From Bacillota bacterium (GTDB lineage Bacteria; Bacillota_E; Sulfobacillia; Sulfobacillales; Sulfobacillaceae), in NCBI GenBank assembly GCA_021820645.1, contig JAKADJ010000095.1:1-7752 (forward strand): 7,752 nucleotides of DNA, written 5' to 3'. A model generated the notes under the pieces. It was given only the letters and a program-made list of their open reading frames with translations, was not told where the DNA came from and made no database searches. Below, in pieces: positions 2,586 to 6,688 of this stretch. Position 1 is the stretch's first letter. Every line of letters starts with the position of its first letter. Made by a program: the position numbers and the translations under genes.

Positions 2586-3035
2586 GTGCCACAGTTGTCC
2601 TCGGTGTTTCGCAAACTAGAGGAAGGGTCAAAACGCCTCACACCACAGCGTGAACTGGTGATTCGCATATTTGCTGACCATCCGGGGGAGCATCTGTCCG
2701 CCGAAGAGGTTCATCGCCTGGTCAAAAAGGAGTTTGCCGACATGGGGCTGGCGACCGTATACCGGGCGCTGGAACTTTTGACTGATTTGGATATTCTGCA
2801 GCGGATTAGCTTCAACGATGGTAAAGCGCGCTATGAGTTCAACCAGGAAGAATTGCATCGGCATCATCACTTAGTGTGCTTGCGGTGTGGAAAAGTCGAT
2901 GAGTTTAATGAAGATCTCCTAGACTCCCTGGAAGATCGTATTTTGAAAAAACGTGGGTTCAAAGTCATGGATCACGAACTCAAATTGTTTGGCATTTGTG
3001 CTTCCTGTAATAGGAATGCGCGAAGGGGGTCATAG
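2586..3035 (+). CDS. fur: Fur-family metalloregulator, most like Fur
   Basis: DNA-binding repressor of the Fur family, 149 residues, starting at GTG 2586 with AAGGTGAG (2571-2578) just upstream. The N-terminal winged helix has LTPQRE at 18-23 and the recognition helix GLATVYRALELL at 54-65. The dimerisation domain has a His-rich metal site (H91, H93, H94, H95) and two CxxC pairs, C98/C101 and C138/C141, expected to hold structural zinc. Overall it resembles Bacillus Fur, including the DGKARYEF and DHELKLFGIC segments. At the position of the oxidation-tuning PerR Asp104 it has Glu106, which favours Fur over PerR; Zur cannot be fully excluded. It probably senses Fe(II) and represses iron uptake. 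The downstream ArsC/Spx-like gene begins one base after its TAG, so the two are very likely cotranscribed and translationally coupled. Confidence 0.87.
   Translation: MPQLSSVFRKLEEGSKRLTPQRELVIRIFADHPGEHLSAEEVHRLVKKEFADMGLATVYRALELLTDLDILQRISFNDGKARYEFNQEELHRHHHLVCLRCGKVDEFNEDLLDSLEDRILKKRGFKVMDHELKLFGICASCNRNARRGS
3023..3030 (+). promoter_or_regulatory. ribosome binding site fixing the start of the UGA-containing gene
   Basis: AAGGGGGT lies inside the last codons of fur and six bases before ATG 3037. It fixes translation initiation upstream of the in-frame UGA. No comparable site precedes GTG 3115, the first start codon after the UGA. Confidence 0.7.
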
Positions 3036-3036
3036 G

Positions 3037-3378
3037 ATGCCTGATTTCTATTGCTATCGGCGATGAAGTACCTGCGCTAAGGCGCGAGCGTGGCTCGCGG
3101 ATCACGGCATCTCAGTGGCCGAACACGACCTCATTGAAGCCCCCCTATCTGTGTCCGAAGTCCAGGCGCTAGCCCATGAAGTGGGCGGCGTCGCGCACCT
3201 CTTGTCCACAAAGAGTCCGAAATACCGGGAACTTAAAGGGGTCGTAACTTCCGACGAGGACTGGATTGCCGAGATGGCCCGAGAGCCCCGACTTATTCGG
3301 CGACCACTCTGGCGTACTCGGCAAGGCATCCTGGTGGGTTTTGACGCGGCCGCCTGGGATGCGGCACTTAATCTGTAA
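3037..3378 (+). CDS. ArsC/Spx-family thioredoxin-fold protein, candidate selenoprotein (UGA at codon 10)
   Basis: A 113-residue protein of the ArsC/Spx/YusI family, a thioredoxin-fold group including arsenate reductases and redox-sensing RNA polymerase regulators. The start is ATG 3037. The frame reads MPDFYCYRR, then UGA (3064-3066), then STCAKARAWLADHGI, and stays open to TAA 3376-3378. The UGA is at residue 10, matching the first Cys of the CxxC redox motif (C10/C13 in Spx), with C13 present. Later family signatures are intact: APLS, the STKSPKYRELKG segment, and PRLIRRPLW followed by GILVGFDAAAW. It lacks the C-terminal extension of Spx, so an ArsC/YusI-type reductase is the likelier subtype. 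A hairpin at 3083-3099 fits a bacterial SECIS. I infer selenocysteine at residue 10; a nonsense-mutated pseudogene or sequencing error is the alternative. UGA is an ordinary stop elsewhere in the window (holin-like gene, mobA). Confidence 0.78.
3083..3099 (+). promoter_or_regulatory. candidate bacterial SECIS hairpin
   Basis: CGCGAGC (3083-3089) and GCTCGCG (3093-3099) form a perfect 7-bp stem with a three-base loop GUG. The loop begins 23 nt after the UGA at 3064-3066. Bacterial SECIS elements are known as a stem-loop inside the coding region shortly downstream of the UGA, with a small apical loop having G in its first or second position; this one meets each point. A weaker alternative pairing, GCGC 3074-3077 with GCGC 3082-3085, would compete. 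Function would require SelB, which cannot be seen here. Confidence 0.65.
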
Positions 3379-4207
3379 CGCGGAGGGAATGTGGGGCAAA
3401 GTGCCCCAGTACGGCGTGGCTCACTTGAGGCAGAATCCGTTGGGCCTCGTTGTCCACATGAAATCGCAAATCCTGGCACCCTTCACTCATGATGGCCAAG
3501 GCATAGTCGCCCCACGGGGTGGTAACGATGCCGGCATCATTGCGGACGCCCTCCACCGAGCCGCTCTTACTTCCAATCACGATGGTCGCAGGCCCGTCCT
3601 CTGGCTCCTCAAGTAGACTATAGGGTAAGGCTCTGGATAAGACAGTGTTGTATTGTTGCCGCGTCAAGACATCCCACATCCATTCGCTCGCCATTTTGCT
3701 CACCATGGTCCGGTGATAGATGCCTTTTAACAGCGTGACCAGATCTTTGGGCGTGGAGAGGCCGATGGGTGGGGGGAGGGTAAAGTCAATCGGTTTTTTG
3801 ATCACGGTGTCGTGTGCGCCAAGGACGGCCATTAAGGCGTTGATGGGCTCGAGCCCGACCAAGCGGACCACCATATTGGTGGCCGTGTTGTCGCTCACGG
3901 TGATCATGAGCATCATGACATCGCGTAAAGATAACTGGAGACCCAAAGACAAATTTTGTAGGATACCGGATCCCGAGACGGTGTCTGACGGTTCAAGGGT
4001 AACCGCCTGGTCAAGATCAAGAACCCCGTCCTCGACCTGTTGCATTGCGGTAATCATAATCGGCAGTTTAATCACAGACGCCGTCTCCATCGGGTGCGGG
4101 GTGCCATATTCGACGACTTCTCCCGTCCCCAGGTGTTCGGCATAAACCACAAATTGTCCGGAAAATTGCTTGGCAATGGTATCAAATGTAGCTTGTAAGG
4201 TGGACAT
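3368..4207 (-). CDS. class-A beta-lactamase-like serine hydrolase, no signal peptide
   Basis: A 279-residue protein of the penicillin-binding/class A beta-lactamase fold. The three active-site signatures are present: S44-V-I-K47 (nucleophile and general base), S105-D-N107, and K214-S-G216. The omega-loop segment (about 133-155, including PIDFTLPPPIGLSTP) lacks the ExxLN motif that holds the deacylating Glu166 of true class A enzymes. The N-terminus (MSTLQATFDTIAKQF) is not a signal peptide, so the protein is probably cytoplasmic. Together these argue for a peptidase, esterase or slow acyl-enzyme rather than a working beta-lactamase. A GAAAGG Shine-Dalgarno site lies in the 16-bp gap after moeA, so it is probably cotranscribed with the Moco genes. 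Its last 11 bp overlap, tail-to-tail, the end of the convergent selenoprotein candidate. Family call is sound; substrate unknown. Confidence 0.85.
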   Translation of the reverse strand: MSTLQATFDTIAKQFSGQFVVYAEHLGTGEVVEYGTPHPMETASVIKLPIMITAMQQVEDGVLDLDQAVTLEPSDTVSGSGILQNLSLGLQLSLRDVMMLMITVSDNTATNMVVRLVGLEPINALMAVLGAHDTVIKKPIDFTLPPPIGLSTPKDLVTLLKGIYHRTMVSKMASEWMWDVLTRQQYNTVLSRALPYSLLEEPEDGPATIVIGSKSGSVEGVRNDAGIVTTPWGDYALAIMSEGCQDLRFHVDNEAQRILPQVSHAVLGHFAPHSLRVTD

Positions 4208-4223
4208 CTAGACCATCCTTTCT

Positions 4224-5474
4224 TTAATCGGAGGCTTCACGGGTGGGGGAATTCCACGTGATCGTGGTGGGCCCCAGGCCCCCAGTGCGGAGACCATTTA
4301 ACAGCGTGCCAGGCTTCAGGGGCGGACTCCCACCCGGGATGATGGCGAACGCGTCGGCGGTTCGAAATGAATTGAGGACGTCAGATTGTTGCGCCAGGTC
4401 CCAGTCAAACCCGATGCCGTGGGCGTCAGCGTGGGTGCGCACGCGGAGGTATCGGGTTTCACGAGTCGGCTTATTGAAATTACTGAGGAGTCGCCCTTGA
4501 ATCTGTTCCTGATAAAGGACGCCATGGTTGAGATGGGCTAGTAGCGGAGTTCCTAGAACGAGCCAAGAGGTCATCGCGGCTCCGGGATTGCCCGATAAGG
4601 CTAGTAGCGGGATTCCTTCGACGCGGGCACCCGCCACGGACTTTCCGGGATGCATGTCCACCCGCCAGAATAACAGGTCCGTCTCGTTGGTCAAGGCGTG
4701 GATCACGTCGTCCCGATCCCCTACCGATACCCCGCCGCTGGTTACCACTAAATCGAAGGAGTCGCCCCCGAGGGCTGTTCTTAATGTACTCAGAAAGAGG
4801 CCACCCTGATCGCCAATAATAGGAAGCGTGGTCACTCGAGCACCGGCCGAGTGGAGTAGCCCACCCAGTAGGAAACGGTTGACATCGTAGATGTGAGAAG
4901 GTGCGAGAGGCTCTCCGGGCAATGCTAGCTCATCGCCTGTGGTCAGGAGCAGAATATGTGGTCTGCGAAACATATTGAGGCTAGTCTGACCCATGCCCGC
5001 AACCAGAGCCAGTTCGGTCGGCCCAAGCCTTTGCCCGCGGCGCAACACGACCTCACCCTGGACTAGCTCACTGCCGCGCCGTGATATGTTTCGCCCCTTC
5101 TGGATAGGTATCGGGACCAGAATGCGTCCATCGGTGGCTTGAATCTGTTCTTGTTCGACGACCGCATCAGCGCCCTCAGGAATGGGAGCGCCGGTAAAGA
5201 TCCGGATGACCTGTCCGGGCTGGCACCGGGGGAGGGAAGCTTGTCCCGCTGCTACCGATCCGCTTAAAGCCAGCTCACCCGGCGCGTCTTCGGCACGCAT
5301 TGCGTATCCGTCCATCGCGGCCCGATCAAAAGAAGGCAGAGCAAAAGGCGCCCTAAGGTCTTCGGCGAGGGTGCGCCCCAGAACTTGTGCCAGCGGGACG
5401 CTTTCTGTCGTGATAATCGGGTGCGTGGCTTGACGTAATTGATCGAGCGCCTCGGAGACCGTCATGTGGGCCAT
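4224..5474 (-). CDS. moeA: molybdopterin molybdenumtransferase MoeA
   Basis: Cytoplasmic enzyme that inserts molybdate into adenylylated molybdopterin in Moco biosynthesis. From ATG 5474 it has 416 residues, typical of the family. Motifs in order: PSFDRAAMDGYA at 47-58, TGAPIPEGADAVV at 94-106, TTGDEL at 178-183, TSGGVSVGDRDD at 245-256, and MHPGKSVAGA plus LSGNPGAAM at 274-301, where family members usually have LPGNPVS. The domain IV beta-barrel follows to the C-terminus. ATG 5474 is preceded by AGGA at a nine-base spacing; ATG 5465 is a second possibility. A longer frame from TTG 5543 has no Shine-Dalgarno site. It lies third in the mobA-mobB-moeA order, 114 bp after mobB. Confidence 0.95.
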   Translation of the reverse strand: MAHMTVSEALDQLRQATHPIITTESVPLAQVLGRTLAEDLRAPFALPSFDRAAMDGYAMRAEDAPGELALSGSVAAGQASLPRCQPGQVIRIFTGAPIPEGADAVVEQEQIQATDGRILVPIPIQKGRNISRRGSELVQGEVVLRRGQRLGPTELALVAGMGQTSLNMFRRPHILLLTTGDELALPGEPLAPSHIYDVNRFLLGGLLHSAGARVTTLPIIGDQGGLFLSTLRTALGGDSFDLVVTSGGVSVGDRDDVIHALTNETDLLFWRVDMHPGKSVAGARVEGIPLLALSGNPGAAMTSWLVLGTPLLAHLNHGVLYQEQIQGRLLSNFNKPTRETRYLRVRTHADAHGIGFDWDLAQQSDVLNSFRTADAFAIIPGGSPPLKPGTLLNGLRTGGLGPTTITWNSPTREASD

Positions 5475-5513
5475 CGCCTTGGTTCCTGCCTTTTGTGTGA
5501 AGTGACATAGGTT

Positions 5514-5543
5514 ATCGTACTCTGAAAAGTCCACTGGCCGCAA
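5514..5543 (-). promoter_or_regulatory. possible internal promoter before moeA
   Basis: In the mobB-moeA gap, on the - strand, TTGCGG (5543-5538) and TACGAT (5519-5514) are 18 bp apart and lie about 40 bases before the moeA start. Each hexamer is only a partial match to sigma-A consensus, so this is a tentative call. It would let moeA and the hydrolase gene be expressed apart from mobAB. Confidence 0.25.
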
Positions 5544-5549
5544 CTGTTG

Positions 5550-5589
5550 ATGTGCATGGTTTTGGCCAAATAATTTCGGCTATGTGCAT
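5550..5589. repeat. 8-bp direct repeats flanking a palindrome in the mobB-moeA gap
   Basis: ATGTGCAT occurs at 5550-5557 and again at 5582-5589. The perfect palindrome TTTGGCCAAA lies between them at 5561-5570. The second copy touches the mobB stop codon. The gap is longer than other spacings in this operon, so an operator is possible. It does not resemble the ModE operator known from Escherichia coli. Confidence 0.35.
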
Positions 5590-6107
5590 TAAGGCTCGAG
5601 CGCCTTAAGGGCGTCCAGGAGCATCGATTCGGGAAAACTGGAGACGTCGTTGTGGTGCAGTAAGAGATCTGCGATGTCTTGGGCACGGGTGGGAGTCAAG
5701 GGGAGGTCCGATGGGAGCCAGAGGATGTCAGACAGCATGGGAGGTTGTGGTCCGATCGCGACGCCTGCCGAAAGCGGCGAGGCCACCGGGGTTTGGCTCA
5801 GATAGATTTTTGGCGTAGCGAGAGACTTTAGCCCTTCGATGAGCAAGTGGTCGCACCGGGAAGTGTACCATGACACCACATCGAATAACGGTATCGCGGG
5901 CTGACGGAGCACCATCCCGTCGGGATGAATACGTAATGTGGCCCGAGCCTGACGTGAACGCTCTGTATCCGTGCCTATCATATCCGGTTCGAGGGGATGA
6001 TGACTATGCTTAAGTACCTTAACGGTGCCAGGCAGTAGGGGGATTAAAGCTTCTAAAAGGAGTGTTTTGCCGAGCCCCGAAGGACCTGCCAGGTGCCATA
6101 CGATCAT
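5589..6107 (-). CDS. mobB: molybdopterin-guanine dinucleotide biosynthesis adaptor MobB
   Basis: Small P-loop GTP-binding protein that assists MobA in attaching GMP to molybdopterin, 172 residues. The Walker A motif GPSGLGKT is at residues 8-15. It is followed by VKVLKHSHHPLEPD at 29-42 and the GTDTERSRQARA segment, both MobB signatures, and by LLIEGLKSLATPKIYL, where E91-G92 are the conserved acidic/Gly pair. The C-terminal third is less conserved and ends in a helix. The ATG at 6107 overlaps the TGA of mobA (ATGA), showing translational coupling. MobB is often dispensable but improves MGD formation, so these genes suggest use of bis-MGD enzymes such as formate dehydrogenase, nitrate reductase or DMSO-reductase relatives. 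Confidence 0.9.
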   Translation of the reverse strand: MIVWHLAGPSGLGKTLLLEALIPLLPGTVKVLKHSHHPLEPDMIGTDTERSRQARATLRIHPDGMVLRQPAIPLFDVVSWYTSRCDHLLIEGLKSLATPKIYLSQTPVASPLSAGVAIGPQPPMLSDILWLPSDLPLTPTRAQDIADLLLHHNDVSSFPESMLLDALKALEP

Positions 6108-6688
6108 CGTGGATTGGCTCCAGTTCGCGCAATCCAGTGTTCCCAGTCTTGGGGGGTGTTAAGGTTCACTAACCATTCGGGATCGGGCACCAAGACATAG
6201 TGTGCCGCGATCCGATTCAGTAAGGTTTGCACTTTAAATTGATGGGCATGAAGCGATCTGACAATATGGCTTGCGAGCTCTTTGGACCAGAGCGCGGCTA
6301 AGGGTTGTGAAACATTTCCACAACGTGGAACAAGCACCTGGTCCTTGGCACCCCGGGCGCCATATAAGATGTCAAAGAGCTCGGGGGGGACATTGGGGCA
6401 ATCTACCGCGAGCACCGCCATCCATTCGTGATCAGTGCGAGTAAGCCCCGCTAGGATTCCTTGCAAGGGCCCTTGATTACCCACCGAATCGGGAAGATCG
6501 GAGTCCCCTAAGGTACCCCAAGTAAAGGGGCGGGATATCCATACGGTGCCAGAGATCGACGTCTGAAGTGTGTCCGAAGCATGTTGGACCAGGGTAGTGG
6601 ACGCGTTGTAGGGTAATTGAGATTTGTTGGTTCCCATCCGACGCGAAAACCCACCCGCCAAGACTAAGCCATCGGCTGCCACTTTCAT
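6104..6688 (-). CDS. mobA: molybdenum cofactor guanylyltransferase MobA
   Basis: Nucleotidyltransferase that transfers GMP from GTP to Mo-molybdopterin, giving the guanine dinucleotide cofactor; 194 residues. The N-terminal Rossmann-like nucleotide-binding motif reads LAGGFSRRMGTNK (10-22); the usual RMGxDK has Asn in place of Asp here. The GPLQGILAGL segment is at 73-82. VDCP at 95-98 supplies the metal-binding Asp96, and LNTPQDW (176-182) is the C-terminal signature. The ATG at 6688 has AAGGGAG (on the - strand, 6702-6696) seven bases upstream. It is the first gene of the - strand Moco operon, overlapping mobB by four bases. The Asn substitution also occurs in related nucleotidyltransferases and need not imply inactivity. 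Confidence 0.92.
   Translation of the reverse strand: MKVAADGLVLAGGFSRRMGTNKSQLPYNASTTLVQHASDTLQTSISGTVWISRPFTWGTLGDSDLPDSVGNQGPLQGILAGLTRTDHEWMAVLAVDCPNVPPELFDILYGARGAKDQVLVPRCGNVSQPLAALWSKELASHIVRSLHAHQFKVQTLLNRIAAHYVLVPDPEWLVNLNTPQDWEHWIARTGANPR

What the first reader, a model, noticed from the sequence alone, without database searches (positions are those of the whole stretch)
3037..3378. Candidate selenoprotein: ArsC/Spx-family gene with UGA at the redox cysteine
Seen: ATG 3037, with AAGGGGGT six bases upstream, opens a frame broken only by UGA 3064-3066. The frame then continues without interruption to 3378. Both sides of the UGA are family sequence: FYCYRR before it and STCAKARAWL after it, matching FYWYPKCGTCRKAK-type relatives. 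The UGA replaces the first Cys of CxxC at residue 10, the catalytic or sensing position, leaving U-S-T-C. Known: Sec typically replaces a catalytic Cys in thioredoxin-fold proteins, and I recall ArsC-like selenoproteins from metagenomic surveys. Inference: this is a Sec-containing reductase or redox sensor coupled to Fur. A gene caller would report either nothing or a truncated protein starting after the UGA.
Basis: partly seen in the sequence, partly recalled or inferred. Interest (0 to 1): 0.93.

Follow-up and report, generated by a model that had tools for sequence, protein, structure and literature searches.

The report
Selenium-containing Spx-like protein beside Fur
A small redox-type gene next to an iron-regulator gene in Sulfobacillus-type bacteria carries an internal stop codon that is predicted to be read as selenocysteine, and the same stop codon sits at the same place in all 29 related genomes found to carry the gene, so this is a likely selenium protein that gene finders cut short.

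Summary
ATG 3037 opens a frame broken only by UGA 3064-3066 and closed by TAA 3376-3378; it encodes an ArsC/Spx-fold protein with UGA at the Cys10 position. Of 34 genomes in the Sulfobacillus benefaciens family, 29 carry the gene, and all 29 have one TGA at that codon. Decoding as selenocysteine is further supported by: (1) a hairpin whose loop lies 23 nt after the UGA, meeting the published bacterial SECIS model, covarying, and freezing synonymous codons; its GCGUGGCU core is in 30/30 family members, 9/25 distant Sec homologues and 0/32 Cys homologues; (2) selB in 28/29 and tRNA-Sec(UCA) in 23/29 gene carriers, with selA-D in both nearest relatives; (3) fur directly upstream in 28/30 members, adjacent in 0/57 other Bacillota homologues. 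ArsC-like selenoproteins are a known kind; this clade is far below the curated cut-offs for Sec-ArsC and ArsC, and is fur-linked. The chemistry is inferred: the partner Cys is lost in 12/30 members, so a lone selenol acting as a reductase or peroxide-reactive centre is likelier than a CxxC-type Spx switch. An RNA-polymerase-bound sensor is not excluded. The window's own genome is not held.

The parts
2586..3035 (+). fur: Fur-family metal regulator, upstream partner gene (149 aa; stop TAG 3033-3035)
   Evidence: Pfam FUR E 8.4e-39; best NCBIfam model is a Fur model, 173.6 bits, below its cut-off of 220; directly upstream in 28 of 30 family members
3023..3030 (+). Shine-Dalgarno-like AAGGGGGT inside the 3' end of fur, six bases before ATG 3037
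   Evidence: sequence, position
3037..3378 (+). ArsC/Spx-like selenoprotein gene (113 residues including Sec at residue 10; about 12.7 kDa)
   Evidence: mass
3064..3066 (+). in-frame UGA, predicted Sec codon, at the position of the redox Cys10 of Spx
   Evidence: UGA in 30 of 30 family members at this column; aligned with Cys10 of Spx chains
3073..3075 (+). Cys13 codon, second position of UxxC
   Evidence: C 18, S 8, A 4 of 30
3083..3099 (+). predicted SECIS hairpin: 7-bp stem 3083-3089 with 3093-3099, loop GUG 3090-3092; 16 nt between the UGA and the stem, 23 nt between the UGA and the loop
   Evidence: model constraints from a passage of PMC13188914

Best explanation
This is a gene for a small ArsC/Spx-fold protein in which the in-frame UGA at residue 10 is predicted to be read as selenocysteine, helped by a likely SECIS hairpin that starts 16 bases after the UGA, and the protein is likely made together with the Fur regulator encoded just upstream and likely works as a selenol-based reductase. 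Shown by calls: the frame, the invariant UGA, the covarying hairpin, the fur-adjacent position, and Sec machinery genes in relatives. Inferred: SelB binds the hairpin and delivers Sec-tRNA. The acidic selenol just before helix 1 then attacks an oxidised substrate (a disulfide, a peroxide or an oxyanion), and is resolved by Cys13 where that is present and by a small thiol or thioredoxin where it is Ser or Ala. The Fur link suggests a role in guarding against oxidative stress in iron-rich acid habitats. My odds: decoding as Sec 0.97; co-translation with fur 0.85; single-selenol reductase rather than RNA-polymerase-bound sensor about 0.6. The confidence given is for the selenoprotein, SECIS and fur-operon part; the reductase step is the weak link.
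For: UGA at the same column in 30 of 30 family sequences, no other stop, purifying selection. Hairpin: columns 25-32 identical in 30 of 30; Ala18 codon GCG 30 of 30 and Arg17 CGA 26 of 29, the lowest synonymous entropies of the conserved columns; covariation score above all 500 shuffles and above all slides; core motif in 9 of 25 distant Sec and 0 of 32 Cys homologues; all numeric constraints of the bacterial SECIS model that I could test are met. Machinery: selB 28 of 29, tRNA-Sec(UCA) 23 of 29 gene carriers against 2 of 5 and 0 of 5 non-carriers; selD 5 of 5, itself with an in-frame TGA, and selA 4 of 5 genomes tested. Sulfobacillus is in print with Sec-containing FdhA and PrxU (passages of PMC4378227 and PMC7409299). 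fur directly upstream in 28 of 30, gap -4 to +38 in the 25 measured. Reductase reading: partner Cys lost in 12 of 30 while U10 is in 30 of 30; Spx-specific Lys62 site is Pro or Thr in 30 of 30; best VIA-align row is a YffB-type protein.
Against: The window's genome is not held. Six of 29 gene carriers (G002, G003, G004, G012, G019, G031) gave no UCA tRNA-Sec, also with a family model; two of them hold a 3' half only (G004, G012); G019 lacks selB too. Hairpin energies are unremarkable: z 0.16; mean z -0.47 over 30; RNAalifold keeps 4 pairs; the two outer pairs fail in 20 and 19 of 30; the number of pairs with two-sided change is matched by 96 of 500 shuffles and 297 of 500, and the +1 slide has more two-sided cells (7 against 5). 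Foldseek ranks Spx-alphaCTD structures first, which favours the sensor reading. No biochemical evidence for any function.
Confidence: 0.85

Rival explanations
1. A selenium-based Spx: the same selenoprotein, but acting as a redox-sensing transcription regulator that binds the RNA polymerase alpha C-terminal domain instead of as an enzyme.
For: TIGR01617 Spx/MgsR is the best NCBIfam model for the window and matches 30 of 30; Foldseek's top hits are Spx-alphaCTD structures; the site of Spx Gly52 is Gly in 24 of 30, the window included, and Arg-Pro of the RPI motif in 30 of 30; paired with another regulator, Fur; no Cys-containing match to TIGR01617 above 36.4 bits in the family.
Against: Second Cys of the switch lost in 12 of 30; Lys62 site Pro or Thr in 30 of 30; the alphaCTD Tyr263 site is Phe in 6 of 6 genomes (site mapped from recall, its importance from a passage of PMC2801614); Spx model NF002459 50.7 bits against a cut-off of 123; no C-terminal tail as in the 131-residue Spx chains; VIA-align places a YffB-type chain above Spx (17.6 against 16.2-16.4).
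Confidence: 0.3
2. The UGA is read, but as another amino acid (Cys or Ser), by a suppressor-type or selC*-type tRNA.
For: tRNA-Sec-like tRNAs with U73 exist in eight family genomes, and such tRNA-Cys can bear a UCA anticodon in other lineages (passage of PMC7609411).
Against: All eight seen here carry GCA, not UCA; the UCA tRNAs have a G before CCA and occur with selA, selB and selD.
Confidence: 0.02
3. A real stop: the 9-codon reading frame is a leader or the gene starts after the UGA (87-aa protein from GTG 3115), and the N-terminal part is untranslated or a decaying gene.
For: Databases hold the short forms; a GTG start exists at 3115.
Against: Residues 1-9 and 11-21 are conserved protein sequence on both sides with no amino-acid change in residues 11-21 against L005 and L001; no other stop in 29 of 29; the short form would lack the first strand, the active-site residue and helix 1 of the fold.
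Confidence: 0.02

Closest known systems
Spx (canonical redox regulator of Bacilli; PDB 3gfk, 1z3e, 3ihq)
   Same: Same fold (Foldseek ranks 1 and 2), 27-28% identity, active residue at position 10, Gly52 site Gly in most, RP motif
   Different: Sec in place of Cys10; partner Cys not conserved; Lys62 site Pro/Thr; no C-terminal tail; 50.7 bits against the cut-off of 123 for NF002459; fur-linked
NF041106 ArsC family (seleno)protein, listed in PMC13188914 as Arsenate reductase-like protein, UxxC (passage)
   Same: ArsC-type protein with Sec at the first position of the motif, UxxC
   Different: Window 32.9 bits against the cut-off of 85; 21 of 30 members match it at E <= 1e-5, window below cut-off
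Arsenate reductase 2 (cd03032, UxxC) and ArsC 1 (pfam03960, UxxS) selenoproteins of the ocean survey PMC2398784 (passages)
   Same: Sec ArsC-like proteins of both motif types, UxxC and UxxS; cd03032 is, from recall, the Spx-type ArsC domain
   Different: Marine metagenome reads; no fur linkage mentioned in the passages seen; sequences not compared here
Sec-containing Spx-like proteins of other Bacillota (L153-L156, L162, L163, L165, L173, L175, L178, L189)
   Same: UxxC; same hairpin place, exact GCGUGGCU core in 8 of these 11; on the same side of the tree as Spx
   Different: No window-type fur beside them; outside the 30-row family clade (support 100/94)
YffB / ArsC-related reductase-like proteins (PDB 1rw1)
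   Different: Cys-containing; 38.4 bits against the cut-off of 121 for NF008107

Membership tests
Bacterial selenoprotein gene | In-frame UGA aligned with a catalytic or redox Cys of homologues | tested here: met
   30 of 30 family members; Cys10 in Spx chains and Cys in 32 of 57 phylum homologues
Bacterial selenoprotein gene | bSECIS model: apical loop 3-9 nt, upper stem 4-16 bp, G in the first two loop positions, 16-37 nt between UGA and loop (quoted in PMC13188914) | tested here: met
   Loop GUG of 3 nt, stem 7 bp, 23 nt. The model's free-energy limit was cut off in the passage and not tested
Bacterial selenoprotein gene | selA, selB, selC, selD in the same genome | tested here: inconclusive
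   Own genome not held. Both nearest relatives (G001, G005) have all four; family: selB 28 of 29, tRNA-Sec(UCA) 23 of 29 carriers
Bacterial selenoprotein gene | Se shown at the residue | not testable with these tools
   Needs 75Se labelling or mass spectrometry
TIGR01617 Spx/MgsR family | Curated cut-off 75.05 bits | tested here: inconclusive
   Window 75.4, just over; by genome search only 4 of 34 family genomes have a match over it
Spx (NF002459) | Curated cut-off 123 bits | tested here: not met
   50.7 bits
Spx | CxxC redox switch | tested here: not met
   U10 in 30 of 30; second Cys in 18 of 30, the window included
Spx | Gly52 contact to alphaCTD | tested here: met
   G51 in the window; Gly in 24, Asp 3, Ser 2, Thr 1 of 30 (mapped)
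Spx | Arg60 and Lys62 for activation (passage of PMC2801614) | tested here: not met
   Arg60 site Lys 20, Arg 5, Thr 5; Lys62 site Pro 28, Thr 2 of 30
Spx | Tyr263 in the alphaCTD of the same organism | tested here: not met
   RSFNCLK in 6 of 6 genomes searched; mapping of the site is from recall; own genome not held
NF041106 ArsC_rel_Se_1 | Curated cut-off 85 bits | tested here: not met
   32.9 bits
TIGR00014 arsenate reductase (glutaredoxin) | Curated cut-off 106.05 bits | tested here: not met
   33.9 bits

The most novel reading that the evidence does not exclude
A selenium-based Spx: a redox sensor with selenocysteine at the switch position, made from the same message as Fur, that retunes RNA polymerase when iron chemistry turns oxidising. 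Because the side of the tree that holds Spx is mostly Sec-containing (43 of 50 rows) with canonical Cys-Spx nested in it, the Cys10 switch of the well-studied Spx may itself descend from a selenocysteine ancestor.
Probability: 0.2. Interest if true: 0.88.

Novelty: new variant of a known kind. Interest (0 to 1): 0.64.

Why it matters
It adds a Sec-only, fur-linked branch to the ArsC/Spx family in a lineage used in bioleaching; the database copies that I saw (six of six) are all cut short. It ties selenium to iron regulation by a conserved gene pair. Sec is kept while its partner Cys drifts to Ser or Ala, a natural experiment on what the selenol needs. The hairpin core shared by distant Bacillota Sec homologues and missing from the Cys homologues gives a test set for SelB-SECIS recognition, and the tree makes the ancestry of the Spx switch (Sec or Cys first) a testable question.

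Tried and rejected
Sequencing error, pseudogene and leader-peptide readings were rejected on the 30 of 30 codon and on selection. Thermodynamic tests of the hairpin gave little, so I rest on covariation and on the codon freeze. Rfam gave nothing at gathering score in the window and two chance-level matches at E up to 10 around the gene. Plasmid records (DNA at high identity only) and viral contigs held no relative. A family-specific tRNA-Sec model (R1) searched in 13 genomes added one UCA tRNA-Sec cut by a contig end (G025) and bare 3' halves (G004, G008, G012, and a second place in G005), and left G002, G003, G004, G012, G019 and G031 without an intact UCA copy. Adjacency of fur in the 57 phylum homologues was tested by tblastn with the window's Fur only (E <= 1e-4), with 726 to about 2,500 upstream bases (median 2,509), so a very different Fur or a farther one would be missed.

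Literature: nine searches of an open-licence library. One search (Spx, selenocysteine, selenoprotein) listed 7 papers, none about a bacterial Spx selenoprotein by title and abstract start. (Sulfobacillus with selenoprotein or selenocysteine) listed 2 and 4, of which I read passages of two. So 'not in print' means only: not found by these searches. Ten papers were seen as passages found by search words; none was read whole.

Full report
Observation. ATG 3037 opens a frame with a single internal UGA at 3064-3066 and a TAA at 3376-3378; AAGGGGGT at 3023-3030 lies six bases before the ATG. Read with the UGA as a residue, the 113-residue product matches Pfam ArsC (E 1.8e-12) and NCBIfam TIGR01617 Spx/MgsR at 75.4 bits, cut-off 75.05. 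Its nearest database proteins, P0001-P0006 of 32 hits, are 86-93 aa and begin after the UGA. I saw the DNA of two of these six (P0001 is the window; P0004 matches L001).

Relatives. A genome-contig scan gave 28 loci. The five close ones (L001-L005) all have TGA at the same codon. In the tool's family of Sulfobacillus benefaciens AMDSBA4 (34 genomes), 29 had a match and each best match held exactly one TGA and no other stop. I read all 29 plus the window: 30 of 30 have UGA at one aligned column. They form one clade (support 100/94) in a tree with 57 further Bacillota homologues (121 columns for 87 rows, many forks unresolved). Selection is purifying (dN 0.169, dS 1.567 against L005). Five genomes lack the gene: G008, G009, G017, G027, G034.

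Machinery. Over the curated cut-off, selB is in 30 of 34 family genomes: 28 of the 29 with the gene (not G019), 2 of the 5 without. The tool counts 23 of 34 for tRNA-Sec, but in one of these (G031) the only such tRNA is read by ARAGORN as tRNA-Cys with GCA. Dropping it and adding G025, whose UCA tRNA-Sec is cut by a contig end, tRNA-Sec(UCA) is in 23 of 29 with and 0 of 5 without the gene. Fisher p is 0.0064 (selB) and 0.0017 (selC), not corrected for relatedness or for incomplete assemblies. In the five genomes tested, selD is present in five, each with its own in-frame TGA followed by a hairpin that I read by eye, and selA in four. Both nearest relatives, G001 and G005, have all four. Against: the window's genome is not held, and G002, G003, G004, G012, G019 and G031 gave no intact UCA tRNA even with a family model; G004 and G012 hold a 3' half. 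Sec-containing FdhA and PrxU of Sulfobacillus are in print (passages of PMC4378227 and PMC7409299).

SECIS. After the UGA, columns 25-32 (GCGTGGCT) are identical in 30 of 30. The Ala18 codon is GCG in 30 of 30 and Arg17 CGA in 26 of 29: the lowest synonymous entropies (0 and 0.48) of the 28 conserved columns listed. The helix 19-26/30-37 pairs in 77.5% of cells, 0 of 500 shuffles as high; covariation score 0.127 against 0.085, 0 of 500 as high, and above the six slides. With eleven Sec homologues of other Bacillota added the score is 0.254 against 0.118 and there are 26 two-sided changes against 8.3. Among the 57 phylum homologues the core is in 9 of 25 with UGA and 0 of 32 with Cys (for Cys rows the column was set by a motif search). 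Loop GUG, 7-bp stem and 23-nt spacing meet the bacterial SECIS model as quoted in a passage of PMC13188914. Against: z 0.16 over 60 nt; mean z -0.47 against -0.19 to 0.07 in six control windows, 11 of 30 below -1 against 2-8 of 30; RNAalifold keeps 4 pairs; the two outer pairs fail in 20 and 19 of 30; the number of pairs with two-sided change is reached by 96 of 500 and 297 of 500 shuffles, and the +1 slide has 7 two-sided cells against 5. Shuffles do not keep relatedness.

Neighbourhood. A match to the window's Fur lies directly upstream in 28 of 30 (not L085, L092) and beside 0 of 57 other Bacillota homologues, though L192 has one about 1 kb away (tblastn with the window's Fur only, 726 to about 2,500 upstream bases). 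The distance from the fur stop to the chosen start is -4 to +38 bases in the 25 measured; five (L085, L092, L097, L099, L100) gave no value by my motif rule. The genomes of L085 and L092 (G007, G006) have only distant Fur proteins (27-32%). G027 keeps a fur orthologue (67%) but lacks the gene in the whole genome and in the 1.5 kb downstream.

Placement. ArsC-like selenoproteins are known: PMC1088965 (UxxS), PMC1794560, PMC2398784 (UxxS, and UxxC cd03032), PMC9312934 and PMC13188914 (TIGR00014 UxxS, NF041106 UxxC), all seen as passages. The window is far below NF041106 (32.9 of 85) and TIGR00014 (33.9 of 106.05). Hence a new variant of a known kind: a Sec-only, fur-linked clade on the Spx side of the family. 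On the tree the Sec label needs 8 changes, at least 5 forced by starred branches, so Sec and Cys have been exchanged repeatedly; the side that holds this clade and canonical Spx has 43 Sec and 7 Cys rows (midpoint root for drawing only, 249 genomes sampled of which 53 had a match at E <= 1e-12, so the direction is not shown).

Noticed in passing
L126 (G031), L128 (G014), L129 (G015), L130 (G028), L131 (G007), L132 (G024), L133 (G029), L226 (G034): tRNA-Sec-like tRNAs with a GCA anticodon and U before CCA in eight family genomes, like the selC*-type tRNA-Cys that PMC7609411 (passage) reports from anaerobic bacteria.
   Followed up: partly
L223 (G008), L224 (G004), L225 (G012), L233 (G005): Bare 3' halves of the tRNA-Sec gene without its 5' half; three share similar sequence before the break, which looks like an integrative element that uses tRNA-Sec as its attachment site (inference). 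G008 has lost selB and the Sec gene.
   Followed up: partly
L102 (G007, C7:31651-31974) and L103 (G025, C9:604-930): A second Spx-like protein with an in-frame TGA at the CxxC position in G007 and a Cys relative in G025; 42.4 bits to the Spx model NF002459.
   Followed up: partly
L153-L209: Of 57 ArsC/Spx-like homologues fetched from a sample of 249 Bacillota genomes, 25 carry one in-frame TGA at the same place (UxxC 16, UxxV 6, UxxA 3).
   Followed up: partly
G021:C2-like places: G022:C2:68158-68280, G021:C1:321883-322005, G011:C51:11083-11223: Weak short matches (20.6-22 bits) to TIGR01617 that also hold one TGA: possible further glutaredoxin-like selenoproteins.
   Followed up: no
window 3368-4207 (-) and 4224-6688 (-): A class A beta-lactamase-like gene (83.5 bits, cut-off 200) and moeA, mobB, mobA lie downstream in the opposite direction; moeA order is kept in most family loci.
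   Followed up: no
G008, G009: Two family genomes (4.1 and 3.0 Mb) without selB over cut-off, tRNA-Sec over cut-off, the Sec gene or a close fur: they look like a lineage that lost the selenocysteine trait.
   Followed up: partly
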